A DNA stretch of 64,000 nucleotides, from assembly GCF_014337195.1 (NCBI RefSeq), contig NZ_CP060634.1, positions 1,984,001 to 2,048,000 on the forward strand. The letters are read 5' to 3'. Positions 49,966-63,391 of the stretch are shown here, in pieces. Positions within the stretch are counted from its first letter, which is position 1. Every line of letters starts with the position of its first letter. A program made the position numbers and the translations under genes. Under the pieces are notes generated by a model. The model was not told the origin of the DNA, ran no database searches, and saw only the letters and a list, made by a program, of their open reading frames with translations. The stretch comes from Qiania dongpingensis (lineage in GTDB: Bacteria > Bacillota > Clostridia > Lachnospirales > Lachnospiraceae).

Positions 49966-50910
49966 ATGAAATATATTGAGACTTTACGCGAGGGCGAACG
50001 GCTTTCAGAAATTTATCTTTGCAAGACGAAGCAGGTTGCGAAGACTAAAATGGGAAAGACGTATTATTCCCTTGTACTGCAGGATAAAACCGGCGTTGTG
50101 GACGGAAAGATATGGGAGCTTTCCGGAGGCATCGACCATTTTGAAGCATTGGATTATATTAAGATCGACGGCGATGTCACCAGCTTTCAGGGGGCGCTGC
50201 AGGTCAATGTCCGGCGTGTGCGGATGGCTGCCGCAGGGGAATACAATCCTGCGGATTATCTCCCCGTTTCCTCCAAAAATATTGACCAGATGTATGCGGA
50301 GCTCCTCCGTTTTGTGAAAAGCATTGAAAATGAGAAGCTGAGGACCCTGGCGGAGCGCTTTTTTGTGGAGGATAAGGCGTTTATCCAGTCCTTCAAAGGA
50401 CATTCGGCGGCAAAGACCGTTCACCACGGCTTTGTGGGAGGTTTATTGGAGCACACTCTGAGCGTGGCGCAGCTATGTGATTTTTACTGCGGCCATTATC
50501 CGGTCCTGAAACGGGACCTGCTGATCGCCGCCGCGCTGTTTCATGATATTGGTAAAACGAAGGAGCTTTCGGACTTTCCGGAAAATGACTACACCGATGA
50601 CGGCCAGCTGCTTGGGCATATAGTGATGGGTACGCTGATGGTTGATGAGAAGCTTAAGACGGTACCGGGCTTTCCCCATAAGACGGCGTCGGAATTAAAG
50701 CATTGTATTCTGGCCCACCATGGGGAGTATGAGTACGGTTCTCCGAAGAAACCGGCGCTGGCGGAGGCCATAGCGCTGAATTTCGCGGACAATACCGATG
50801 CTAAGATGCAGACGATGACGGAGCTTCTGGCAGGGAATGCGGGTAATCATGACTGGCTGGGATTCAACCGGCTGATGGATTCCAATGTGCGGATGTCCAC
50901 GGAGCTTTGA
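49966..50910 (+). CDS. yhaM: 3'-5' exoribonuclease YhaM family
   Basis: 314 residues. The N-terminal OB-fold nucleic-acid-binding domain (about 15-100) includes GKTYYSLVLQDKTGVVDGKIW. The HD domain (about 145-280) has GGLLEHTLSVAQ and ALFHDIGKTKEL, with later ILAHHGEYEYGSP. The gene matches YhaM from Bacillus (314 residues), a 3'-5' exonuclease trimming RNA ends. GGGAGAATGAA precedes the ATG. Confidence 0.94.
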   Translation: MKYIETLREGERLSEIYLCKTKQVAKTKMGKTYYSLVLQDKTGVVDGKIWELSGGIDHFEALDYIKIDGDVTSFQGALQVNVRRVRMAAAGEYNPADYLPVSSKNIDQMYAELLRFVKSIENEKLRTLAERFFVEDKAFIQSFKGHSAAKTVHHGFVGGLLEHTLSVAQLCDFYCGHYPVLKRDLLIAAALFHDIGKTKELSDFPENDYTDDGQLLGHIVMGTLMVDEKLKTVPGFPHKTASELKHCILAHHGEYEYGSPKKPALAEAIALNFADNTDAKMQTMTELLAGNAGNHDWLGFNRLMDSNVRMSTEL

Positions 50911-50982
50911 ACCCGGAATCAAATCTAAAATTGCAGGCCGCCGGCGATAGATGGAAGGCGGCCGGAATAAGGAGTTTTTATA

Positions 50983-52410
50983 TTGGAAAAAAACCAGGTT
51001 TTTCAGACGGTTATTGAAGATATGAATGAACAGGGAGAGGGTATAGGCAGAGTCAATGGCTATACCCTTTTTATTAAGGATGCGGTCATCGGAGACCGTA
51101 TCGAGGGAAAAGTGGTGAAAGCCAAAAAGCACTATGGCTATGGCCGCGTGCTGTCCATTTTGGAGCCGTCCCCCTTTCGGGTGACGCCTAGATGTCCCGC
51201 CGCTGCGCCCTGCGGGGGATGCCAGCTTCAGGCGATGTCCTATGAAAGACAGCTTCAGTTTAAGGAGGATAAGGTTCGGAATCATCTGGTACGCATCGGG
51301 GGCTTTTCAGAGGACAGCCTTCCCATGGAGCCGATATTGGGAATGGAAATAGGAGAAGAACCCTTTTCAGAAAAAGAGACTCGGGGAGAAACCGGGGGAA
51401 GCGGCCCCTTTCATTACCGGAACAAGGGACAATTTCCTTTTGGTAGGGCAAAGGACGGGAGAATCGTCTATGGCTTTTATGCAGGCCGGACTCACTCCAT
51501 TGTCGAAGCAGAGGGATGCTGTCTGGGAGCGCCGGTCTGCGAAAAGATCCTGCAGACCATAAAGAGGTTCATGGAAGAGTATCATATTGAACCCTATAAT
51601 GAAGAAACGCATTCCGGTCTGATACGCCACGCCTTGATTCGGACAGGTTATCACACCGGGGAGATCATGGTCTGCCTGGTCATCAACGGAGACCGCCTTC
51701 CCCGCGCGCAGGTTTTGACGGATCGGCTGATGGAAATAAAGGGGATGGCCTCGGTATCTGTCAATATCAATCGGGAAAGGACCAATGTAATATTGGGAGA
51801 GAAGGTGGTCTGCCTGTCAGGCCTGCCTTATATCACCGACCGGATCGGCGCCCTCACTTATAAGATTTCTCCACAGTCCTTTTACCAGGTGAACCCTGTC
51901 CAAACGGAGAAGCTTTATGGGAAAGTCCTGGAGTACGCCGGCCTGACAGGTTCGGAGACCGTATGGGATCTGTACTGCGGTATCGGCACCATCTCCCTGT
52001 TTCTGGCACAGAGGGCAAAACAGGTATTCGGGGTGGAGATCGTACCGGCAGCCATAGAAAATGCCCGGGAAAATGCGAAGCTTAACGGTATTCCGAATAC
52101 GGAATTCTTTGTGGGAAAGGCTGAGGAAGTAGTGCCCCGGTGGTATGAGGAGCATGAGGAGGCCTCTGTGGACGTCATTGTTGTGGATCCGCCCAGGAAA
52201 GGCTGTGACGAGACACTTTTAAAGACCATGGTCCAGATGAGGCCAGGGAAGATCATCTATGTGTCCTGCGACTCCGCCACCTTGGCGAGGGATCTGAAAT
52301 ATTTGTGCGAAGAAGCGTACAGGGTGGAGAAAGTACAGCCGGTGGATATGTTCCCGCAGGGGGTACACTGCGAGGTCTGCGTGGAACTGGGAAGAAACAA
52401 AACTATCTGA
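50983..52410 (+). CDS. rlmD: 23S rRNA (uracil-C5)-methyltransferase, RlmD/RumA type
   Basis: 475 residues. An N-terminal TRAM domain (about 5-60) precedes cysteine ligands CPAAAPCGGC (4Fe-4S) and a SAM domain with WDLYCGIGTISLFLAQ. The catalytic Cys is in IIYVSCDSATLARDL. TrmA-family enzymes of this type methylate uracil 1939 or 747 of 23S rRNA. TTG start at 50983 with AAGGAG 8 bases upstream; a GGCCGCC/GGCGGCC hairpin sits just before the RBS (50936-50963). Confidence 0.92.
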   Translation: MEKNQVFQTVIEDMNEQGEGIGRVNGYTLFIKDAVIGDRIEGKVVKAKKHYGYGRVLSILEPSPFRVTPRCPAAAPCGGCQLQAMSYERQLQFKEDKVRNHLVRIGGFSEDSLPMEPILGMEIGEEPFSEKETRGETGGSGPFHYRNKGQFPFGRAKDGRIVYGFYAGRTHSIVEAEGCCLGAPVCEKILQTIKRFMEEYHIEPYNEETHSGLIRHALIRTGYHTGEIMVCLVINGDRLPRAQVLTDRLMEIKGMASVSVNINRERTNVILGEKVVCLSGLPYITDRIGALTYKISPQSFYQVNPVQTEKLYGKVLEYAGLTGSETVWDLYCGIGTISLFLAQRAKQVFGVEIVPAAIENARENAKLNGIPNTEFFVGKAEEVVPRWYEEHEEASVDVIVVDPPRKGCDETLLKTMVQMRPGKIIYVSCDSATLARDLKYLCEEAYRVEKVQPVDMFPQGVHCEVCVELGRNKTI

Positions 52411-52510
52411 CTTGAGTGATGCCCATCCGGTATTCATAGAGCACGAAAAAGCAGAAATCTAAAAGCAGAGCTTATATGATAACTTTATGGGGAAAAGGAG
52501 GGATGGAAAC

Positions 52511-55500
52511 TTGGTAAACAAGAAAACAGAGGTTACAATACACAGTTCTGCAGCAGAGTATTTAACATATGTCGCGTCTATTGGAGATCAGGCAGACAGC
52601 TTTGAGATGCGATATGAAGATGAAAATATATGGCTGACACAGAAAATGATGGCGGAATTATATAATGTTTCAGTATCTGCAATCAATCAGCACCTCAAGA
52701 AAATATTTGAAGATGGCGAATTACTGGAAGAAGCAGTTATTAAGAAATACTTAATAACTGCGGCAGATGGTAAATCCTATTGTACGAAACACTATAATTT
52801 ACAGGCAATTATTGCTGTTGGGTTTAAGGTGAATAATGAACGTGCGGTACGCTTTCGTAAATGGTCAGGACAAATTGTGAAAGATTATACAATTCAGGGC
52901 TGGACTATGGATAAGGAGCGTCTGAAAAAAGGTCATATGTTTACAGATGAATATTTTGAAAGGCAATTGCAGAATATTCGGGAAATACGACTTTCTGAAC
53001 GGAAATTTTATCAAAAAATTACTGACTTATACGCTACGGCTTTCGATTACGATAAAGATGCAATGACCACCAGACGTTTTTTCCAAACTGTACAAAATAA
53101 GATGCATTGGGCTGTCCACAGACATACAGCGGCAGAATTAATTGTTGAACGAGCTGATGCTGAGAAAGAATATATGGGCCTGACTACTTGGACATCGGCT
53201 CCTGATGGGAAAATTGTTAAGTCAGATGTCTCGATTGCCAAAAATTATTTGAATGATAAAGAAATGTCCTATATGGAGAGAATTGTATCGCTATATCTTG
53301 ATTATGCAGAATTGCAGGCGGAACGTAAAATTCCAATGAGCATGGAGGATTGGGCAAAACGCCTGGATGGGTTCCTGGAATTCAATGGGAATGAAATACT
53401 GACGGGTGCAGGTAAAGTCAGTGCAGAACAGGCGAAACTTTATGCGGAAACAGAGTTTGAGAAATATCGCATTGTACAGGATAGAATGTTTGTGTCTGAC
53501 TATGACAGATTTCTTCTTGAAATAGAAGAACAGAAGTGCAGTATGATCGCTCATAAAAGAGAATCCGACGGGAGGGAACAGTCATGGAGTGAACACAGCA
53601 GAAATGTGTCGAAATTATGTTTTTGGGCAGCCGAAAAATTAGGTTTAGGCATATTGGCAAAATTGACTGGTCTGCTTCACGACTTCGGGAAGGGAACCGT
53701 AGATTTTTTAAGCTTCTTGCGAGGGGCCGGCGATAAGCACCCTAATCACGCCGGCTTGGGGGCACTCTATGTTCACCGGCATTGGTGGATGCCGGCGAAA
53801 ACGGTAAAGGAAAGGCAAACGGCTCAATTGATCGCTTTGTGTATTTATGGGCATCATGCCGGTTTGCCGGACTGCTTGAATGATTCTGGAAATTCTCCAT
53901 ATTTGAATGGTTTGGAGGAGCAGTCGGATGACTATTATATGGAGGCCATGGGAAACTTCTATTCAGAGATAGCATCTGCCGAGGAATTGGATGAGCTGTT
54001 TACTGGGGCATGCGGAGAACTAGAGAAATTTGGGCTGGATAAATATTCTTTTGACTGGGGAATGCTGGCACGGCTCTTACTGAGTGTACTTATTGATTCA
54101 GACAGATGGGATTCTGCATGCTTTGATTATGATGCCAATCCCTTTGAAACGTTTCAGAATGATCAGCCGGATTGGAAAAAGCTTCTTCTTGAGCTTGAGA
54201 CTTTTTTGGGAAGTTTTCCCAAAAAAGGGAAATTGGCGGAGATTCGATGGAATATATCCGAGTGGTGCAGAGATGCGGGAGAATTAAAACCGGGAATTTA
54301 TACTCTGTCAGTTCCCACGGGAGGAGGGAAAACGTATTCCAGTCTGCGGTTTGCCCTTGCTCAGGCCAAAAAGTATGGTCAGAGGAGAATTTTTTATTTT
54401 ATACCTATGAATACGATACTGGATCAAAATTCTAAGGATATCAGAGATGCGCTTTCTGATTATCCGTCAATTCTCGAGCATCATTCCAATGTGGTCCTGG
54501 AGGATGAAGAAGAGGAGAAGAAGTATCGAAGATTGACAGAGCGATGGGACAGCGACATTATTTTGACCAGTTTAGTTCAATTTCTGGACTCGTTGTTTCA
54601 GAATGGTAATAGCAAAGCAAGAAGAATGTACCGCCTTGTGGATTCAGTTCTTATTTTTGATGAGATTCAGGCTCTGCCTAAAAGATGCCGGGAATTGTTT
54701 GAAAAAGCCATTCAATTTCTTGTGCGGTATTGTAACTGTACCGTGTTGCTCTGTACGGCAACACAGCCGGAGCTGAATTTAGAAGCGAAAGAATTAGTCC
54801 CAGATGTGGATGCGCTGTATCGAAAATTAAAGCGGGTAACTTATATTCCTCAATTGGAGGTGCGGAGATATCAAGAGGCTGCCATTGATATTGTCGAGTT
54901 TATTCGAGATAAAAAATCCGTGCTGACTATTGTAAATACAAAGGATGCGGCTTGGAATGTTTTTAAGGGGATTTTAGAGCAGCTGGAAATACTGAATTAT
55001 GGTTTAGTAGAAATCAAACAGGGGCTTTCGGATGAAGCACTTGAGGAATATGCAAGAGACTGTGGAGAAAACAAGGTTTTGTGTGTGCATCTGAGCACAC
55101 TTATGTGTCCAGAGCATCGAACAGAAATCGTTCGGTGGGTTAAAGCCTGGCTGGAAGCAGAAAAACTGGTTTGCTGTGTTTCCACAGCCTTGATCGAAGC
55201 GGGGATCAATGTGAGCTTTCCAATCGTGATACGAAGTTTGGCCGGCATTCCGAGTGTGGTTCAGGCGGCTGGGCGTTGTAATCGAAACTGTGAAGCAGAT
55301 AGGGGATACATATATTTGTGGAATCTGGCTGAGGAGAGACTGGGGCGATTGCCGGATATCCAGAAAGGAAAAGAAATCAGTATGAGCCTGTTCAGCAGCA
55401 TAGGAGATATAGATGAAATAGGAACCCCACAGATGATCAAAAAATATTTTGAAAAAGAAGAAGTCTATACTCAGAAGGTGGAGAAATATCCGTATAAAGA

Positions 55501-55924
55501 ATGGAATTCAGATTTGGTCACCATGTTTTCCACTAACAGAGAGTGCCGGAATGTAGCTGAGGATTTGCAGGATAATCCTTTACCTAATCTCAGCAAACGA
55601 CTTAGTCAGAGCTTCCGGACTGCCGGATCAGCTTTCCGAGTCATCGACCAAAAAACAAAAAGTGTAATAGTTCCTTATGGAAAGGGAAAAGAGTTGATTG
55701 AAAAGTTGGCCGGCCGGCATCCCCTCAGTGAGGAAATCAAATATTTAAAAAAAGCACAGCGATACAGCGTAGATTTATTTGAACAGATTTTTGAGCGATT
55801 GGGAAGAGAAGGCGCCCTGATTTCTTTGGGAGATACCGGTGCAGTTGTTTTAAAGGAAGAGTATTACAACGCCTGGGCCGGAGTTAGTATTACGCCGCGG
55901 GAAATGGTGGATCTCATAATGTGA
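52511..55924 (+). CDS. cas3: RhuM-Cas3 fusion: RhuM-family domain joined to type I-C Cas3 nuclease-helicase
   Basis: 1137 residues. Residues 1-344 form a complete RhuM-family (Virulence_RhuM) protein with ENIWLTQKMMAELYNVSVSA (HTH-like), FFQTVQNKMHWAVHRHTAAE and YEKYRIVQDRMFVSDYDR. From Met345 (MIAHKRESDGREQ) a full type I-C Cas3 follows. Its HD nuclease has His362 and HDFGKG (390-395); its helicase has Walker A PTGGGKT (602-608), DEIQ (717-720), CTATQPE and QAAGRCNRN. Cas3 degrades the non-target strand after Cascade binding. The TTG at 52511 has AAGGAGG 8 bases upstream; the ATG at 52487 would overlap that site. An ATG at 53543 could start separate Cas3 but lacks a good RBS. Normal I-C Cas3 is about 800 residues. 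Confidence 0.88.
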   Translation: MVNKKTEVTIHSSAAEYLTYVASIGDQADSFEMRYEDENIWLTQKMMAELYNVSVSAINQHLKKIFEDGELLEEAVIKKYLITAADGKSYCTKHYNLQAIIAVGFKVNNERAVRFRKWSGQIVKDYTIQGWTMDKERLKKGHMFTDEYFERQLQNIREIRLSERKFYQKITDLYATAFDYDKDAMTTRRFFQTVQNKMHWAVHRHTAAELIVERADAEKEYMGLTTWTSAPDGKIVKSDVSIAKNYLNDKEMSYMERIVSLYLDYAELQAERKIPMSMEDWAKRLDGFLEFNGNEILTGAGKVSAEQAKLYAETEFEKYRIVQDRMFVSDYDRFLLEIEEQKCSMIAHKRESDGREQSWSEHSRNVSKLCFWAAEKLGLGILAKLTGLLHDFGKGTVDFLSFLRGAGDKHPNHAGLGALYVHRHWWMPAKTVKERQTAQLIALCIYGHHAGLPDCLNDSGNSPYLNGLEEQSDDYYMEAMGNFYSEIASAEELDELFTGACGELEKFGLDKYSFDWGMLARLLLSVLIDSDRWDSACFDYDANPFETFQNDQPDWKKLLLELETFLGSFPKKGKLAEIRWNISEWCRDAGELKPGIYTLSVPTGGGKTYSSLRFALAQAKKYGQRRIFYFIPMNTILDQNSKDIRDALSDYPSILEHHSNVVLEDEEEEKKYRRLTERWDSDIILTSLVQFLDSLFQNGNSKARRMYRLVDSVLIFDEIQALPKRCRELFEKAIQFLVRYCNCTVLLCTATQPELNLEAKELVPDVDALYRKLKRVTYIPQLEVRRYQEAAIDIVEFIRDKKSVLTIVNTKDAAWNVFKGILEQLEILNYGLVEIKQGLSDEALEEYARDCGENKVLCVHLSTLMCPEHRTEIVRWVKAWLEAEKLVCCVSTALIEAGINVSFPIVIRSLAGIPSVVQAAGRCNRNCEADRGYIYLWNLAEERLGRLPDIQKGKEISMSLFSSIGDIDEIGTPQMIKKYFEKEEVYTQKVEKYPYKEWNSDLVTMFSTNRECRNVAEDLQDNPLPNLSKRLSQSFRTAGSAFRVIDQKTKSVIVPYGKGKELIEKLAGRHPLSEEIKYLKKAQRYSVDLFEQIFERLGREGALISLGDTGAVVLKEEYYNAWAGVSITPREMVDLIM

Positions 55925-55987: not shown

Positions 55988-56764
55988 TTGAAAATCAGAA
56001 ATCAGATTGAATATTGTGTGTCGGGAAAGTACGCATTATTCAGTGATCCGATTGCCCGGATGGGCGGAGAGAAGTTCAGCTATATGCTTCCGACTTATCA
56101 GGCGTTAAAAGGAATCACAGAAAGCATATATTGGAAGCCGTCTATTTTATGGGTGGTGGATGAAGTCCGGATTATGAAGCCTATTCGAACAGAATCGAAA
56201 AATATCCGGCCGATTAGTTACGTCGCGCCGAAGAATACACTGTCCGTCTATACTTATTTGGAGGATGTGACTTATCAGGTCCGGGCACATTTTATATTTA
56301 ATGAAAACCGGCGGGAAGATCTGGAAAATGATTTTAATGAGAATAAGCACCACAATATCGCAAAGCGTATGGTGGAGAAAGGAGGCCGCAGAGATATTTT
56401 CCTGGGAACCAGAGAATGCCAGGGATATGTGGAGCCTTGTACGTTTGGCGAAGGAGAAAGCTATTATGACGACTATGGAGAATTGGATTTTGGGTTAATG
56501 TTTCATGGATTTGATTATCCGGATGAGACCGGTGATTCCATTTTGGCTGCCAGATTCTGGAGGCCAAAGATGATAGATGGAGTGGTCAGGTTCCTTCTGC
56601 CGGAAGAAATTCCGGAAGAGATGAAGCGGAAGATTCGCCCGATGAAAGTAAAGAAATTCGGAAAAGAGCTTAATAATTTCAGCGGCCTGACGGAGGAAGC
56701 TCTTCAGTCGGAATTTACCGGGGAAGGAGGAGGAATGAATGGGCTGGATGCAGAAATTGTGTGA
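55988..56764 (+). CDS. cas5c: Type I-C Cas5 (Cas5c), pre-crRNA endoribonuclease
   Basis: A 258-residue RAMP protein that in type I-C replaces Cas6: it cuts the repeat RNA and stays at the 5' handle of the crRNA. Visible marks are RNQIEYCVSGKYALFSDPI, SYMLPTYQALKGI, the basic KHHNIAKRMVEKGGRRD with the Lys/His pair typical of the catalytic site, and DIFLGTRECQGYVEP. TTG start at 55988 with AAAGGAGGAA 7 bases upstream. It overlaps cas8c by 26 bases. Confidence 0.95.
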   Translation: MKIRNQIEYCVSGKYALFSDPIARMGGEKFSYMLPTYQALKGITESIYWKPSILWVVDEVRIMKPIRTESKNIRPISYVAPKNTLSVYTYLEDVTYQVRAHFIFNENRREDLENDFNENKHHNIAKRMVEKGGRRDIFLGTRECQGYVEPCTFGEGESYYDDYGELDFGLMFHGFDYPDETGDSILAARFWRPKMIDGVVRFLLPEEIPEEMKRKIRPMKVKKFGKELNNFSGLTEEALQSEFTGEGGGMNGLDAEIV

Positions 56765-58220
56765 AGCTTATGACGCCGGGATTGTCTGCGGCCAATCAAA
56801 AGAGTCCGTTATGCTTGTTCCATTGGGATTTGTACGTAAAAAAGTAAAATATCATGTGGTGCTTTCGCAGGATGGACAATTTATATCAGCAGATGAGTTA
56901 ATGGACGAAACGCAGTTTCAGGAAATTCCGAGCACACCACAGGCAGAAAGTCGTACTGGTGACAACGGAGCGCCCTTTCCGTTGGTGGAACAGTTGAAAT
57001 ATCTGGTCTACGAGGACAAGAATTTGATACGGTTTGGCCGATATATGGAACAGTTAAGTGCATGGTGTGAGCAGTCAGATGCACCTGTCTGCCTGCGTGC
57101 GGTATATACATATCTGGACAGACATACGCTCCTCGCTGATTTGGAGTCACAGCCGAATTTAAAGCTGAAATACTATAAGAATGCAGAAAAACGAGATGGA
57201 TTGGGTGAGGACACAAAAGCGATGGTATGTTTTTCTGTTCAAATGCAGGACGGAAGCAACGATGATCTATGGCTCAGAGAAGATGTCAGGCAGAGCTGGG
57301 GGAGTTTTCTCTCGGATAAAATGCCGGGGGCCAGAGAGTTCTGCTATGTGGAAGGGATAATGCTTCCGTTTGTGGAAAATCATCCAAAGGTGCAGGGAAA
57401 TGCAAAATTGATTTCAGCGAAGGACTCAGAATTTCCTTTTCAGTATAAAGGACGTTTTATAGATGACCGCAGCGCAGCATCGGTTAGTTTTGACGCGTCT
57501 GTTCGCGCGCATAATGCGTTGGCTTGGCTCATAGCGCGTCAGGGAATACAGAAATATGGTATGACATGGGTGGTTTGGAATACAAATGGTGCGGTCATAA
57601 AAGTACCGCTTGATGAAAAAAATGGTTTTTGGGGAGAGGAAGAAGACGAGGAAGAGGATACATCCAGACCAGTGATCAATACATTTGCAAGTTACGCGAA
57701 AGAGGTGAATTCCGCTGCCAGCGGTTATGGAGGTAAGCTTCGCGATTATAACCCGGAACGGATAAATTGTACGGTGATACTGGGATTGGAAGCGGCGACG
57801 GATGGAAGGATGTCCGTTACTTATTATCAGGAGTGCCCTGGAAATGGATATGTGGAACGTTTAGAAAACTGGTATAAGGATTGCTGCTGGTGGCAATATA
57901 ACCGGAAAAAGAAAATAAAAGAAATAGGAACCCCAACTCCGGACAGTATTGCCGTTGCCGTAATGGGGATTGACGCGGTAAATGCGGCAAAGAAGGATAA
58001 AAAATGTGAAAAATCCCATACGAAATTGATGCGTAAACTGCAGGCAAAAATTTTGAGCTGTATTGTGGACAAGCGGCCGCTGCCTTTGGATGTTATTCGA
58101 AGTGCATTTTACAGAGTATGTAATCCTCTCGCTTTCGTCAGTGGCAAAGAACGGCAATGGTCCAGATCTTCATGGGAGGACAGCCTGGATATTGCTTGTG
58201 CGATGATTTATTGCTTTTAA
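56739..58220 (+). CDS. cas8c: Type I-C Cas8c (Csd1) ending before its small-subunit domain
   Basis: 493 residues. Large Cascade subunit for PAM reading, starting MGWMQKLCEAYDAGIV as Csd1 proteins do; DRSAASVSFDASVRAHNALAW and ECPGNGYVERLENWY are also family-like. Standard Cas8c is about 580-610 residues, with the last 120 forming a Cas11-like domain also made separately from an internal start. Here the frame ends with TAA (58218-58220) just after SSWEDSLDIACAMIYCF, where that domain should begin. The same frame resumes after the stop in the next gene. GGAGGAGG precedes the ATG, inside cas5c. Target-recognition part looks intact. Confidence 0.92.
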   Translation: MGWMQKLCEAYDAGIVCGQSKESVMLVPLGFVRKKVKYHVVLSQDGQFISADELMDETQFQEIPSTPQAESRTGDNGAPFPLVEQLKYLVYEDKNLIRFGRYMEQLSAWCEQSDAPVCLRAVYTYLDRHTLLADLESQPNLKLKYYKNAEKRDGLGEDTKAMVCFSVQMQDGSNDDLWLREDVRQSWGSFLSDKMPGAREFCYVEGIMLPFVENHPKVQGNAKLISAKDSEFPFQYKGRFIDDRSAASVSFDASVRAHNALAWLIARQGIQKYGMTWVVWNTNGAVIKVPLDEKNGFWGEEEDEEEDTSRPVINTFASYAKEVNSAASGYGGKLRDYNPERINCTVILGLEAATDGRMSVTYYQECPGNGYVERLENWYKDCCWWQYNRKKKIKEIGTPTPDSIAVAVMGIDAVNAAKKDKKCEKSHTKLMRKLQAKILSCIVDKRPLPLDVIRSAFYRVCNPLAFVSGKERQWSRSSWEDSLDIACAMIYCF

Positions 58221-58262
58221 CAGCGCGGGAAACAGGGAGATAATGGAGCATTTTTCCCTGAA

Positions 58263-59345
58263 TTGCAGCTTGATACGAAAAAATCAGACTATTTATATGG
58301 CCGTCTTTTAGCTGTGGCGGATTTTATTGAAGAAAGAGCAATGGATAAGGGACGGGATTACCCGACGAATGCAATCCGTTTAATGCAGCAGTTCGTACAG
58401 CGCCCGTTCGAAACGTGGCCGAAGATTCATGAGAAGTTGATTCCAAGTTTTAAAAAGCTTGGGACTAACGGTAGGATATATCAATTGATACTGGGAGAAA
58501 TAGAAGAGTTATTTCTGGGAAAGAACAGGTATGAATGCGGGGAGCTTTCGTTGGAATTCCTGCAGGGGTTTTCCAGCCAGAGGCAGAACCTCTTTCAAAA
58601 ATGGGAACCGCAGGGTCGGAAAGAAGACGAAGAAAAATTCTTGTATGAGCTATCAAGCAGACGCTCAGAACTATATGGATGTTTGCTGGCGATTGCAGAT
58701 GCTGCGGAGCAGGAGGCCAGTGACGGAGAACGGATCGGCATGACGAATGCCATGCAGATGATGACGGTGTATGCAGCAAGGCCATATGAAAGCTGGGGAA
58801 GACTACATGACAAACTTCTTCCTTATCTGGAAAGATTAGGGGAGAAGGCTGAATATTATCAATGGTTGATTGGTATTATTGAAATGCAAATGTCACAGTC
58901 GGAACGAGAGTCAATAGCACCGTTGGATGGCAGCTATCTGCATGGTTACTATGGTATGCAGCGAGTGTTCTATCGAAAAACACGGTTTTCCTGGACGCCT
59001 CAGATATGGGACGCCGAAAAAGATATGCGGAGCGCCATATATGGGAAGCTTCTGGGTATCGCGGAACGGCTGGAAAGAAAGCGTTTTATCGGCGAGGAAA
59101 AAGTAAATGCGCGATGTACAAATGAATTGCGGTTTATGATGGCATTTGCCCAGAAGCCGGCCTCCACATGGAGGAATTTAAGGGTTAAATTAGAACCGTA
59201 TCAAAGATATGCGGGAAATTGTGCAGAGGAGGATAATACTATTTTGGAGCAGCTGGAAGCAGAGCTGCAGCAACATGGCTGGAATACAAATACCCCTCTT
59301 GGCAGCATATACCTGCATTGCTACTATGAAGAACGAAATAGATAA
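58263..59345 (+). CDS. cas11c: Triple-domain Cas11c-like small-subunit protein
   Basis: 360 residues of three tandem copies of the Cas8c C-terminal (Cas11c) domain. Copy 1 (about 8-113) starts SDYLYGRLLAVADFIEE, copy 2 (133-238) RSELYGCLLAIADAAEQ and copy 3 (255-360) RSAIYGKLLGIAERLER. Each continues with TN..(M), a (R/K)P..(S/T)W box, KLxP, and ends with (G)xxYLHGYY or similar. Linkers are short and charged. It lies in the frame of cas8c, 42 bases after that stop, and the bases between (PELQLDTKK end) still read like Cas8c. Possible start is TTG 58263, with GGAG 14 bases upstream, a weak spacing, so re-initiation or stop readthrough is possible. Confidence 0.85.
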   Translation: MQLDTKKSDYLYGRLLAVADFIEERAMDKGRDYPTNAIRLMQQFVQRPFETWPKIHEKLIPSFKKLGTNGRIYQLILGEIEELFLGKNRYECGELSLEFLQGFSSQRQNLFQKWEPQGRKEDEEKFLYELSSRRSELYGCLLAIADAAEQEASDGERIGMTNAMQMMTVYAARPYESWGRLHDKLLPYLERLGEKAEYYQWLIGIIEMQMSQSERESIAPLDGSYLHGYYGMQRVFYRKTRFSWTPQIWDAEKDMRSAIYGKLLGIAERLERKRFIGEEKVNARCTNELRFMMAFAQKPASTWRNLRVKLEPYQRYAGNCAEEDNTILEQLEAELQQHGWNTNTPLGSIYLHCYYEERNR

Positions 59346-59364
59346 AAGAAAAGGAGATACGATT

Positions 59365-60249
59365 ATGTCTGTATTGAAAAACAAAATTGATTTCGCACTG
59401 GTTTTTACTGCAAGAAATGCAAATCCCAATGGAGATCCTTTGGATGGAAATCGCCCGAGAACTACATACAAAGGGCTGGGGGAAGTCTCAGATGTTTGCC
59501 TGAAGCGTAAAATCCGTAACCGATTGCTGGATGAAGGACAGAATATTTTTGTTCAGTCTGATGACAGACGCAGGAAGGGAGATACGTTCCGCTCTTTAAA
59601 AGATAGAGCGGATAATGAACCGGCATTGGCGGAGTGTACGAAACAGATTAAAGCGGGGAAAAAGACCAGGGAGGATTATGCCAGACAGGCGTGTGAAATA
59701 TGGTATGATGTCAGGGCTTTCGGACAGGTCTTTGCTTTTAAAAAGGGAAAGAAGGAGGAAGAAGAGTCAGATGCCGTATCAATTGGTATTCGAGGCCCAG
59801 TCAGCATTCAATCTGCTTTCAGCATAGAGCCGGTTAATATCACAAGTTCCCAAATTACGAAATCTGTGAATCTAGAGACTGGAAAAGATCCGGATAAAAA
59901 GGGAAGCGACACAATGGGAATGAAGCATCGGGTGGATTTTGGCGTTTACGTTACCTATGGGGCGATTAACGTTCAGCTTGCAGATAAGACAGGTTTTAGT
60001 GAAGAAGATGCAGAAGCATTAAAAGAAGCGCTGAGAACCTTATTCTGTAATGACGAGACCTCTGCCCGTCCGGCCGGCAGTATGGAGGTTGTAAAGCTGA
60101 TCTGGTGGAAACATAATTGCGCCAGTGGTCAATATTCATCCGCTAAAGTACATCGGACGCTGCAGGTAACCTGCGATGACCAGGGTAATGTATCGGTAAG
60201 TACAGCGAATCTGGATGGCCTCGATCCGGAGGTTCTGGATGGCGAATGA
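59365..60249 (+). CDS. cas7c: Type I-C Cas7 (Csd2) crRNA backbone subunit
   Basis: 294 residues; six or seven copies form the crRNA-binding filament. KIDFALVFTARNANPNGDP is the family N-terminus; SIGIRGPVSIQSAFSIEPV and GMKHRVDFGVYVTYGAIN follow. The ATG at 59365 has AAGGAG 8 bases upstream. It lies 20 bases after the small-subunit gene and overlaps cas4 by 11 bases. Confidence 0.96.
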   Translation: MSVLKNKIDFALVFTARNANPNGDPLDGNRPRTTYKGLGEVSDVCLKRKIRNRLLDEGQNIFVQSDDRRRKGDTFRSLKDRADNEPALAECTKQIKAGKKTREDYARQACEIWYDVRAFGQVFAFKKGKKEEEESDAVSIGIRGPVSIQSAFSIEPVNITSSQITKSVNLETGKDPDKKGSDTMGMKHRVDFGVYVTYGAINVQLADKTGFSEEDAEALKEALRTLFCNDETSARPAGSMEVVKLIWWKHNCASGQYSSAKVHRTLQVTCDDQGNVSVSTANLDGLDPEVLDGE

Positions 60250-60907
60250 TGATTCGGATCTTTTGATGATCTCAGGACTGAAGCATTTTCAGTTTTGCCG
60301 AAGGCGCTGGGCATTGGTTCATATTGAACAGCTTTGGGAAGAAAACGTACTGACATTGGAAGGGCATTATATGCATGAGCGGGTACATGACGACAGCTTT
60401 ACAGAAGCGCGGGGAGCTGTATTGCTGTCCCGAGGAATGCCCGTGCGCTCTCAAAGACTGAAAATCACTGGCGTATGTGATATGGTAGAACTCTACAAGG
60501 ATGAAGACGGAGTTCCGATTCAAGGGCGGAGCGGGCGTTGGAGACTGTATCCTGTAGAATATAAGCTGGGGCAACCGGATGTACAAGGGGCAGATGCATT
60601 ACAGCTTTGTGCACAGGCGATGTGCCTAGAGGAAATGTTCGTGACAGATATTCCCGAGGCTGCCCTATATTATGGAAAGATAAAGCGTCGGCAGAGGATT
60701 ATGCTGACAGACGAACTGCGGCAAAAGGTTAAAGACTCTGTGGCAGAAATGCACCAGCTGATGATAAAAGGATACACACCGAAAGCAAAAATGGGAAAAG
60801 CCTGTAAGAACTGTTCCCTTGAGGAAATCTGTCAGCCAAGATTAACGAAGCAAGTCTCGGCTTCAGAATATAATCGAAGAGCTTTTCATGAGGAGGACGG
60901 ACAATGA
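60239..60907 (+). CDS. cas4: Cas4 RecB-like nuclease
   Basis: 222 residues; trims spacer precursors at the PAM and sets spacer orientation with Cas1-Cas2. The first cluster Cys is in FQFCRRRWALVHIE and the C-terminal three are in CKNCSLEEIC, giving a 4Fe-4S nuclease; YPVEYKLGQP contains the QhXXY-like/Lys nuclease region. The ATG at 60239 follows CGGAGG, inside the cas7c end. It overlaps cas1 by 4 bases. Confidence 0.94.
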   Translation: MANDDSDLLMISGLKHFQFCRRRWALVHIEQLWEENVLTLEGHYMHERVHDDSFTEARGAVLLSRGMPVRSQRLKITGVCDMVELYKDEDGVPIQGRSGRWRLYPVEYKLGQPDVQGADALQLCAQAMCLEEMFVTDIPEAALYYGKIKRRQRIMLTDELRQKVKDSVAEMHQLMIKGYTPKAKMGKACKNCSLEEICQPRLTKQVSASEYNRRAFHEEDGQ

Positions 60908-61935
60908 AGAAACTGTTGAATACTTTATATGTTACGACTCCGAATGTATATTTGTCGTTGGATGGAGAAAATATTGTACTTTTGCACGAAGAAAGTGAAC
61001 TGGGGCGTATACCGCTTCACAATCTGGAAGGGGTTGTCTGCTTTGGCTATAAAGGTGTAAGTCCTGCATTGATGGGAGCTTGTGCAGAAAAGGGCATTGG
61101 TCTTTGCTTTTTGACCCAGCATGGCCGGTTCCTGGCGAGGGTTGCCGGGCCGGTGAGTGGAAATGTGCTATTACGTGAAACACAATATTTCCGGGCAGCA
61201 GACGAGATGCAGTCGCTTGCTATCGCCAGATCGTTTCTATTGGGAAAAATTTATAATGGCAGGTGGTGTCTTGAGAGAGTGAAACGTGATCATCCTATGC
61301 GTATCGACCAGGAGAAAATTAATAGTGCTGTGGGCCAGATGCTCCAGTCTTTGACGGATCTGGAAAATGCAGGAAGCCGGAGTGAGTTAATGGGGATTGA
61401 AGGAATAGCGGCAAAAGTGTATTTTGGAGAGTTTTCTCAGATGATTCTTCGGAATGAGGATGTGTTTGCTTTTGATGGAAGAAATCGCCGCCCTCCGCTG
61501 GACCCAGTGAATGCAATGCTTTCCTTCGCGTATACGCTGCTGGGAAATGAGATAACAGGTGCCTTGGAAACAGTAGGATTGGATCCGGCAGTGGGATATC
61601 TTCATACGGTTCGTCCCGGACGAGCGTCTTTAGCGCTGGATTTGCTTGAAGAACTGCGAGCTCCATTGGCAGACCGATTTGTTGTAACACAGATAAACCT
61701 CGGGACATTTACTGGAAAAGATTTCCTGAGAAAAGAAAACGGAGCCATTTTTATGACTGATGAAGCAAGAAAACGCTTTTTATCTGCCTGGCAGAAGTGC
61801 AAGCAGGAAACGATTATGCATCCTTATCTAAAAGAAAAGATTCAATGGGGACTGGTTGCTTATGCGCAAGCTATGCTTTTATCCAGATATTTACGAGGCG
61901 ATTTAGACGCATATCCGCCGTTTTTATGGAAATGA
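60904..61935 (+). CDS. cas1: Cas1 integrase, type I-C
   Basis: 343 residues of typical length. Metal ligands are visible in MGIEGIAAKVYFGEF (Glu) and in GLDPAVGYLHTVRPGRASLALDL (His, followed by Asp), of which the segment VGYLHTVRPGR is the best mark. Cas1 with Cas2 inserts new spacers at the leader end. All catalytic positions look intact, so adaptation may be functional. Confidence 0.96.
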   Translation: MKKLLNTLYVTTPNVYLSLDGENIVLLHEESELGRIPLHNLEGVVCFGYKGVSPALMGACAEKGIGLCFLTQHGRFLARVAGPVSGNVLLRETQYFRAADEMQSLAIARSFLLGKIYNGRWCLERVKRDHPMRIDQEKINSAVGQMLQSLTDLENAGSRSELMGIEGIAAKVYFGEFSQMILRNEDVFAFDGRNRRPPLDPVNAMLSFAYTLLGNEITGALETVGLDPAVGYLHTVRPGRASLALDLLEELRAPLADRFVVTQINLGTFTGKDFLRKENGAIFMTDEARKRFLSAWQKCKQETIMHPYLKEKIQWGLVAYAQAMLLSRYLRGDLDAYPPFLWK

Positions 61936-61946
61936 GGTGATTATAT

Positions 61947-62237
61947 TTGCTTGTGCTGATAACATATGATATCAACATCACAGAAGCGGCAGGGGCACGT
62001 CGTTTAAGACGCGTGGCCAAGCAGTGCGTAAACTATGGTACACGGGTACAAAATTCTGTTTTCGAATGCCGGGTGGATGCTGCCCAGTATGTGAAGCTAA
62101 AGCATCTCCTATTGAAGGAAATAGATGAAGAAGCGGATAGCTTGCGTTTTTATTCTTTAGGAAATCATTATAACGGAAAGGTTGAACACTTTGGAGTGCA
62201 GCGCGGACTGAAGGTAGACGATCCTTTGATATTATAG
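61947..62237 (+). CDS. cas2: Cas2, type I-C
   Basis: 96 residues, ferredoxin-like fold, dimer bridging Cas1 dimers. LVLITYDINITEAAG holds the conserved Asp, followed by YGTRVQNSVFECRVD, all family-typical. TTG start at 61947 with GAGGTGA 6 bases upstream. Last cas gene before the array. Confidence 0.94.
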   Translation: MLVLITYDINITEAAGARRLRRVAKQCVNYGTRVQNSVFECRVDAAQYVKLKHLLLKEIDEEADSLRFYSLGNHYNGKVEHFGVQRGLKVDDPLIL

Positions 62238-62421: not shown

Positions 62422-63391
62422 GTCGAGGCTCGCAAGAGCCTTGTGGATTGAAATCTTTTGATTCATGAAATCCTCTAATTTTCTCGTGTCGAGGCTCGCA
62501 AGAGCCTTGTGGATTGAAATATCGTACACATGATCTCCTCCTGTTCCAATTAGGGTCGAGGCTCGCAAGAGCCTTGTGGATTGAAATTGTCAGGTCTTCG
62601 TCGCCTTGATCATCGTTCGCAGTCGAGGCTCGCAAGAGCCTTGTGGATTGAAATATGCTTTATCCTCCTTGTTTGATAGCTGCTTAAATGTCGAGGCTCG
62701 CAAGAGCCTTGTGGATTGAAATATCAGATAACCGGACACATGAGCATTGACACCGCCGTCGAGGCTCGCAAGAGCCTTGTGGATTGAAATACTTCTTCTG
62801 TAAATTGCTCTGCGATCTTCTCGGTCGAGGCTCGCAAGAGCCTTGTGGATTGAAATCACGGTGCTGATCCCGGCGTCCACCGCCTCCAGCGTCGAGGCTC
62901 GCAAGAGCCTTGTGGATTGAAATCGCAATCAGATATTGTACTTTCCCGTCTGTCATTGTCGAGGCTCGCAAGAGCCTTGTGGATTGAAATTGAATATCCA
63001 TTATGGCATTATCCAGAGTAGAGGTCGAGGCTCGCAAGAGCCTTGTGGATTGAAATTTTTACAATTTGGTTGTTCGGTCCCGGATGATCTTGTCGAGGCT
63101 CGCAAGAGCCTTGTGGATTGAAATCACTTTACACCTCTGGCAGTCCCGTTCCTCCCGCGTCGAGGCTCGCAAGAGCCTTGTGGATTGAAATCATAGTCCA
63201 GTGAGAAATATGCTTTATGGCGATGTCGAGGCTCGTAAGAGCCTTGTGGATTGAAATTTCCTGCCCCTCCCGATATCTCCATTTTAACATAGTCGAGGCT
63301 CGCAAGAGCCTTGTGGATTGAAATGAGGGATATGGAAATGACAACCCTGGCTCAAAAAGTCGAGGTTCGCGAGAGCTTTGCAGATTTAAAT
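62422..63391 (+). CRISPR. Type I-C CRISPR array, 15 repeats and 14 spacers
   Basis: 33-base repeat starting GTCGAGGCTCGCAAGAGCC and ending TTGTGGATTGAAAT, a normal type I-C form with a GGCTC/GAGCC stem. Starts: 62422, 62488, 62555, 62622, 62690, 62758, 62824, 62891, 62958, 63024, 63092, 63159, 63225, 63292 and 63359. Spacers are 33-35 bases. Repeats 1-12 and 14 are identical, repeat 13 has one change (CGTAAG) and the last has about six changes, marking the leader-distal end. Orientation (ATTGAAA 3' end, cas genes and leader upstream) is plus. No spacer is duplicated and no target is seen in this window. Confidence 0.98.

What the first reader, a model, noticed from the sequence alone, without database searches (positions are those of the whole stretch)
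58263..59345. Three tandem Cas11c domains in one protein within a type I-C cas operon
Seen in the sequence: three roughly 105-residue repeats, each with the Cas8c C-terminal pattern (YG.LL..A at the start, TN, RP/KP..W, KL.P, Y.HGYY at the end), at residues 8-113, 133-238 and 255-360. Known: type I-C Cascade normally has a Cas8c whose C-terminal domain resembles Cas11c, plus two Cas11c copies made from an internal start in cas8c. Inference: here Cas8c lacks that domain, and a single three-domain chain would provide the same number (1+2) of small-subunit positions. A genetically encoded fixed small-subunit strip is unfamiliar to me in type I-C.
Basis: partly seen in the sequence, partly recalled or inferred. 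Interest (0 to 1): 0.92.

Follow-up and report, generated by a model that had tools for sequence, protein, structure and literature searches.

The report
Cas8c fused to two small subunits
A CRISPR immune protein that normally needs two separately made helper subunits carries both fused to its own tail in some gut bacteria, and in this genome that long gene is split by a stop codon.

Summary
The three repeats are real, and by profile comparison all three belong to the Cas8c C-terminal/Cas11c family; the fold was confirmed for repeat 2 only. They are not a separate gene by descent: the 360-aa frame is in phase with cas8c and cut off by one stop codon, 58218-58220. Relatives (Lactonifactor, Clostridium symbiosum, an Enterocloster MAG) hold one unbroken ~867-aa Cas8c: core + CTD + two more Cas11c-like domains. 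All 66 full-length relatives from one search have exactly three copies; of 255 Cas8c proteins of at least 540 aa, 165 have one, 5 two, 85 three, none more. Three equals the 1+2 belly of type I-C Cascade. One-copy genes usually keep the internal ribosome site that makes separate Cas11c (41 of 50 loci, strict test); 0 of 6 three-copy loci do; 2 of 2 two-copy loci do. Triplication probably arose several times. Best reading: a type I-C variant that hard-wires its small subunits into Cas8c, seen here as an interrupted allele. Eight open-access literature searches showed no report of it. Function is inferred, not shown.

The parts
56739..58220 (+). Cas8c core (493 aa), ends at in-frame TAA 58218-58220
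   Evidence: TIGR01863 positions 1-451 of 588, E 9.7e-49, Pfam Cas_Csd1 E 3.9e-65; same frame as 58263-59345; no break at this place in L001-L003
58221..58262 (+). 14 open codons between the stop and the TTG; aligns to the core-CTD linker of unbroken relatives; no in-frame ATG/GTG
58263..59345 (+). three-CTD ORF (360 aa), possible TTG start with weak Shine-Dalgarno (-5.6 kcal/mol)
58287..58586 (+). repeat 1 = Cas8c's own C-terminal domain
   Evidence: CTD profile residues 9-108; groups with D1 of relatives
58662..58961 (+). repeat 2 = Cas11c-like domain
59028..59339 (+). repeat 3 = Cas11c-like domain
   Evidence: CTD profile residues 256-359; D3 family profile vs one-copy CTD hhalign E 8e-34; not folded alone
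52487..55924 (+). cas3 with an N-terminal RhuM domain in the same frame
   Evidence: PF13310 E 4.9e-103 at residues 83-333; cas3_HD and cas3_core after it
55988..56764 (+). cas5c
   Evidence: TIGR01876 E 3.5e-69
59365..60249 (+). cas7c; starts 20 bases after the three-CTD ORF's stop, so no room for a separate cas11 gene between them
   Evidence: TIGR02589 E 1.3e-96; ATG read
60215..60907 (+). cas4
   Evidence: TIGR00372 E 3.9e-32
60904..61935 (+). cas1 (type I-C Cas1c)
   Evidence: TIGR03640 E 6.7e-143
61947..62237 (+). cas2
   Evidence: TIGR01573 E 2.3e-16
62422..63391 (+). CRISPR array, 15 repeats of 33 nt, start-to-start spacing 66-68 (spacers 33-35 nt), last repeat degenerate

Best explanation
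The window carries an interrupted copy of a fused, three-tailed Cas8c. In unbroken relatives one ~850-930-aa chain holds the Cas8c core, Cas8c's own C-terminal domain and two further Cas11c-like domains joined by linkers of about 20-30 residues. Ordinary type I-C cas8c genes make two proteins from one gene: Cas8c, and Cas11c from an internal ribosome site, assembled 1:2. In the fused lineages that internal site is gone and the two small subunits come in cis, so every complex gets exactly three small-subunit positions from one chain. Shown here: domain content, count, gene continuity in relatives, loss of the internal start in the loci examined. Inferred: that the chain forms the Cascade belly and supports the displaced DNA strand as Cas11c does, and that the window's copy is impaired because the stop lies before all three domains.
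Confidence: 0.8

Rival explanations
1. The stop in the window is a sequencing or assembly error and the strain has an unbroken three-tailed Cas8c.
For: One isolated stop in otherwise constrained sequence (dN/dS about 0.05-0.17 over the three repeats against L001-L003); none of the 80 full-length three-copy proteins of at least 850 aa is broken there.
Against: The window's protein lies in a contig of 3,084,832 bases (P0001), so a finished assembly is likely; I had no reads. dS is near saturation, so constraint says nothing about a recent stop.
Confidence: 0.17
2. The split is functional: a Cas8c core plus a separately translated three-unit small-subunit strip, made by re-initiation at TTG 58263.
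For: In phase, the TTG 42 bases after the stop, an SD-like GGAG upstream (-5.6 kcal/mol); ordinary type I-C already makes large and small subunits as separate chains.
Against: SD weak compared with about -8 to -12.6 at most one-copy internal starts; a better spaced AGGGAG precedes an out-of-frame ATG at 58243 (read); no other examined protein is split there; the Cas8c core would lack the CTD that seeds the small-subunit row.
Confidence: 0.12
3. The extra domains are not structural Cas11c stand-ins but were recruited for something else (protein docking, anti-CRISPR decoy), with small subunits supplied otherwise.
For: Repeat 2 is less basic and repeat 3 the most diverged.
Against: No room for a cas11 gene between cas8c and cas7 in the window or L001-L003; internal start lost; count fixed at three; repeated origin.
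Confidence: 0.1

Closest known systems
Type I-C Cascade of Desulfovibrio vulgaris (PDB 7KHA, 8DEJ; PMC7684278)
   Same: Cas5c-Cas8c-Cas7c operon order; Cas8c CTD and Cas11c are the same helical bundle; three such units per complex
   Different: There Cas11c is a separate chain from an internal ribosome site; here all three units are encoded in one reading frame and the internal site is missing
Type I-C of Neisseria lactamica (8g9s, 8g9t and related entries)
   Same: Matched by sequence profile and fold
   Different: Cas8 chain of 582 residues with a separate Cas11 chain
Fused effectors of type III (Cas7-11 of III-E, III-Dv, III-I)
   Same: General trend of multi-subunit complexes turning into one chain with a Cas11 domain (abstract listings, passages of PMC12669027)
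   Different: There Cas7 units are fused with one Cas11; here the large subunit is fused with two small subunits in a DNA-targeting type I system; no relationship claimed

Membership tests
Type I-C CRISPR-Cas | cas3-cas5c-cas8c-cas7c-cas4-cas1-cas2 with I-C specific Cas5c, Csd1, Csd2 and Cas1c | tested here: met
   TIGR01876, TIGR01863, TIGR02589, TIGR03640 matches in order 55988-62237; RhuM on Cas3 is extra
Cas8c/Csd1 (TIGR01863) | curated cut-off 218.65 bits for the whole protein | tested here: not met
   Window pieces score 166.4 and 142.1 separately; unbroken relatives G001-G003 pass with 239.8-253.3. So the window's single ORFs fail, the family of the unbroken gene passes
Cas11c small subunit | sequence relation of each repeat to the Cas8c CTD/Cas11c | tested here: met
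   hhalign E 6.1e-52, 2.4e-40, 8e-34 for D1, D2, D3
Cas11c small subunit | Cas11c fold, repeat 2 | tested here: met
Cas11c small subunit | Cas11c fold, repeat 3 | tested here: inconclusive
Cas11c small subunit | separate chain from an internal start in cas8c | tested here: not met
   0 of 6 three-copy loci have the canonical start with SD, against 41 of 50 one-copy loci; lax test: 2 of 6 against 44 of 50
Cas11c small subunit | position in the Cascade belly, contact with the non-target strand | not testable with these tools
   no complex modelling available

The most novel reading that the evidence does not exclude
Type I-C systems have several times left the one-gene-two-proteins scheme and written the small-subunit count into Cas8c itself: the C-terminal domain is amplified to exactly three, the internal ribosome site is dropped, and the chain becomes a fixed-length belly. 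Two-copy genes that still keep the internal site look like a half-way state. The repeated stop at three would make the copy number a read-out of Cascade geometry.
Probability: 0.65. Interest if true: 0.82.

Novelty: new variant of a known kind. Interest (0 to 1): 0.7.

Why it matters
Type I-C Cascade is reported not to form without Cas11c (passage citing Tan et al. 2022 in PMC11899642), and the internal start that makes Cas11c is a bacterial signal. A natural chain that carries all small-subunit units would show how stoichiometry set by translation can be replaced by gene architecture, gives a direct test of how many small subunits the complex needs, and offers a simpler part list (Cas5c, Cas7c, one Cas8c, Cas3) for use in other hosts. 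The two-copy forms make the order of events testable.

Tried and rejected
Rejected: three unrelated or chance repeats. Rejected: a conserved two-gene split; none of the 80 full-length three-copy proteins of at least 850 aa is split there. P0003 (517 aa, 45.8-kb contig) and P0007 (287 aa, 27-kb contig) begin elsewhere and may be other broken copies; I did not check their contigs. Rejected: separate cas11 gene; no room before cas7 in the window or L001-L003.

Led nowhere: viral-contig scans with the ORF and with alignment A1 gave no relative. Plasmid tblastn gave six records whose three pieces cover a stretch of 330-378 bases, too short for more than one CTD. phmmer against PDB sequences gave nothing. 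G1706 and G1393 showed long frames, but one search found one weak CTD in L098 and none in L099. dN/dS cannot date the stop. The CTD tree (102 columns, 84 rows) is weakly resolved: D2 of the main clade forms one clade at 98, D3 at 87, D1 only at 37; the copies of P0197, P0199 and P0219 do not group by protein, so their independent origin rests on the core tree (quick search, SH-aLRT only) and not on this one. Rows dropped before counts: one search used 33 of 80 three-copy, 5 of 5 two-copy and 42 of 162 one-copy proteins plus the window's core; one search left seven proteins out of the 80 as not of the main clade. In one search the copy-number bins held 55 one-copy rows; one search removed duplicates and weak profile hits and is the count used. 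One-copy proteins were counted by length, so a few may be multi-copy ones cut by a contig end.

Full report
Observation. The 360-aa ORF at 58263-59345 is real. It lies in a complete type I-C operon: cas3 (with a RhuM domain), cas5c, cas8c, this ORF, cas7c, cas4, cas1, cas2, then 15 CRISPR repeats. Two curated families hit the ORF in three stretches, and my CTD profile finds copies at residues 9-108, 134-233 and 256-359.

What it is. Translating from the cas8c start to the end of the ORF shows one frame with a single stop at 58218-58220. In the first genome scan three loci encode a relative: Lactonifactor longoviformis (L001), an Enterocloster bolteae MAG (L002) and Clostridium symbiosum (L003). 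In all three, the core and the three repeats are one unbroken frame of about 867 residues. So repeat 1 is Cas8c's own CTD, repeats 2 and 3 are additional, and the window's gene is an interrupted copy. Intact copies exist.

How general. A search with the C-terminal part of the C. symbiosum protein gave 79 proteins; 66 are full-length chains of 853-927 aa, and all 66 have exactly three CTDs. After a further search with a two-copy protein (best 120 of 2805 listed), 255 of the proteins held are at least 540 aa long: 165 with one CTD, 5 with two, 85 with three, none with more. These are counts of what three searches returned, two of them started from three-copy queries, not of nature. In genomes the form is rare. 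Among the samples, each including its centre genome: Csd1 matches in 57 of 299 genomes of the centre's family, one of them three-copy; a three-repeat query matched 22 of 392 of the order, one three-copy; alignment A1 matched 48 of 391 of the class, with one three-copy and one two-copy, 49 of 394 of a second order, with one three-copy and two two-copy, and 71 of 398 of the phylum, with two three-copy. The centre genome G001 is the three-copy case; copy number was counted by profile only in loci that were fetched, otherwise judged by frame length.

The internal start. In the D. vulgaris complex one Cas8c and two Cas11c made from an internal ribosome site form the belly (PMC7684278; parts 1 and 2 of 3 of the text read). 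I looked for that site. At the protein level, 75 of 75 one-copy proteins have M, V, L or I at the start position before the CTD; in 66 three-copy proteins the place is mostly E, P or N, and a Met within 16 residues upstream occurs in 8 of 66 against 36 of 75. At the DNA level, with duplicates removed, a start codon at the canonical place with SD energy of -8 or better occurs in 41 of 50 one-copy loci, 2 of 2 two-copy loci (before D1 only) and 0 of 6 three-copy loci (L001, L002, L003, L078, L097, window). With a laxer test the figures are 44 of 50, 2 of 2 and 2 of 6 (L003, L097). No three-copy locus has a good start before D2 or D3.

Origins. On a tree of the Cas8c core (81 rows) the three-copy label needs 6 changes, at least 4 if only starred branches count; the two-copy label needs 2. 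The window sits in a main clade of three-copy proteins whose nearest one-copy neighbour is P0016. L097, not in that tree, has three CTDs 67-73% identical to each other while its core is at most 43% identical to any of the 15 proteins I compared: a recent, separate triplication. The CTD tree is weak and does not by itself show separate origins for P0197, P0199 and P0219.

Mechanism. Most likely the chain supplies the CTD and both small subunits in cis, replacing translation control of stoichiometry. Linkers average 24.6 (19-32) and 21.8 (20-24) residues in 73 proteins. Against a simple equivalence, repeat 2 is on average net negative (-1.6) while one-copy CTDs are net positive (+1.7). [quoted passage not shown] so I infer that this copy is impaired unless the stop is an error.

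Literature. Eight searches showed no paper on tandem or fused Cas11c in Cas8c. PMC12669027, the 2025 classification, was seen as 12 of 16 passages; those do not mention it. McBride 2020 and Tan 2022 were not read (known from citations). Subscription papers and preprints are outside the library, so absence from print is not established.

Noticed in passing
window 52487-55924: cas3 is in one frame with an N-terminal RhuM domain (residues 83-333); cas3 of L001-L003 starts without it.
   Followed up: partly
L067 and L079 (two-copy Cas8c, 784 and 779 aa frames); proteins P0195, P0196, P0202, P0204, P0216: Cas8c with two CTDs; the two with DNA keep a strong SD and GTG before the first CTD and none before the second, so they may make a two-domain Cas11c.
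   Followed up: partly
L097 (919-aa frame): Recent separate triplication: three CTDs 67-73% identical to each other.
   Followed up: yes
L002 genome (G002): The MAG holds three cas8c genes: two one-copy and the three-copy one; it may be a mixed bin.
   Followed up: no
L003 19-2972: ORFs upstream of the type I-C locus look like type III RAMP-family proteins (from reading the sequence; no family search).
   Followed up: no
window 49966-52410 and L001 18-2401: The same two genes (an HD-domain protein and an RNA methyltransferase-like protein, names recalled) stand upstream of the CRISPR region in both, suggesting a shared site.
   Followed up: no
L048, L073, L075: One-copy cas8c genes without any start codon at the usual internal place.
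   Followed up: no
window 63352-63391: Last CRISPR repeat is degenerate, as usual at the far end of an array.
   Followed up: no
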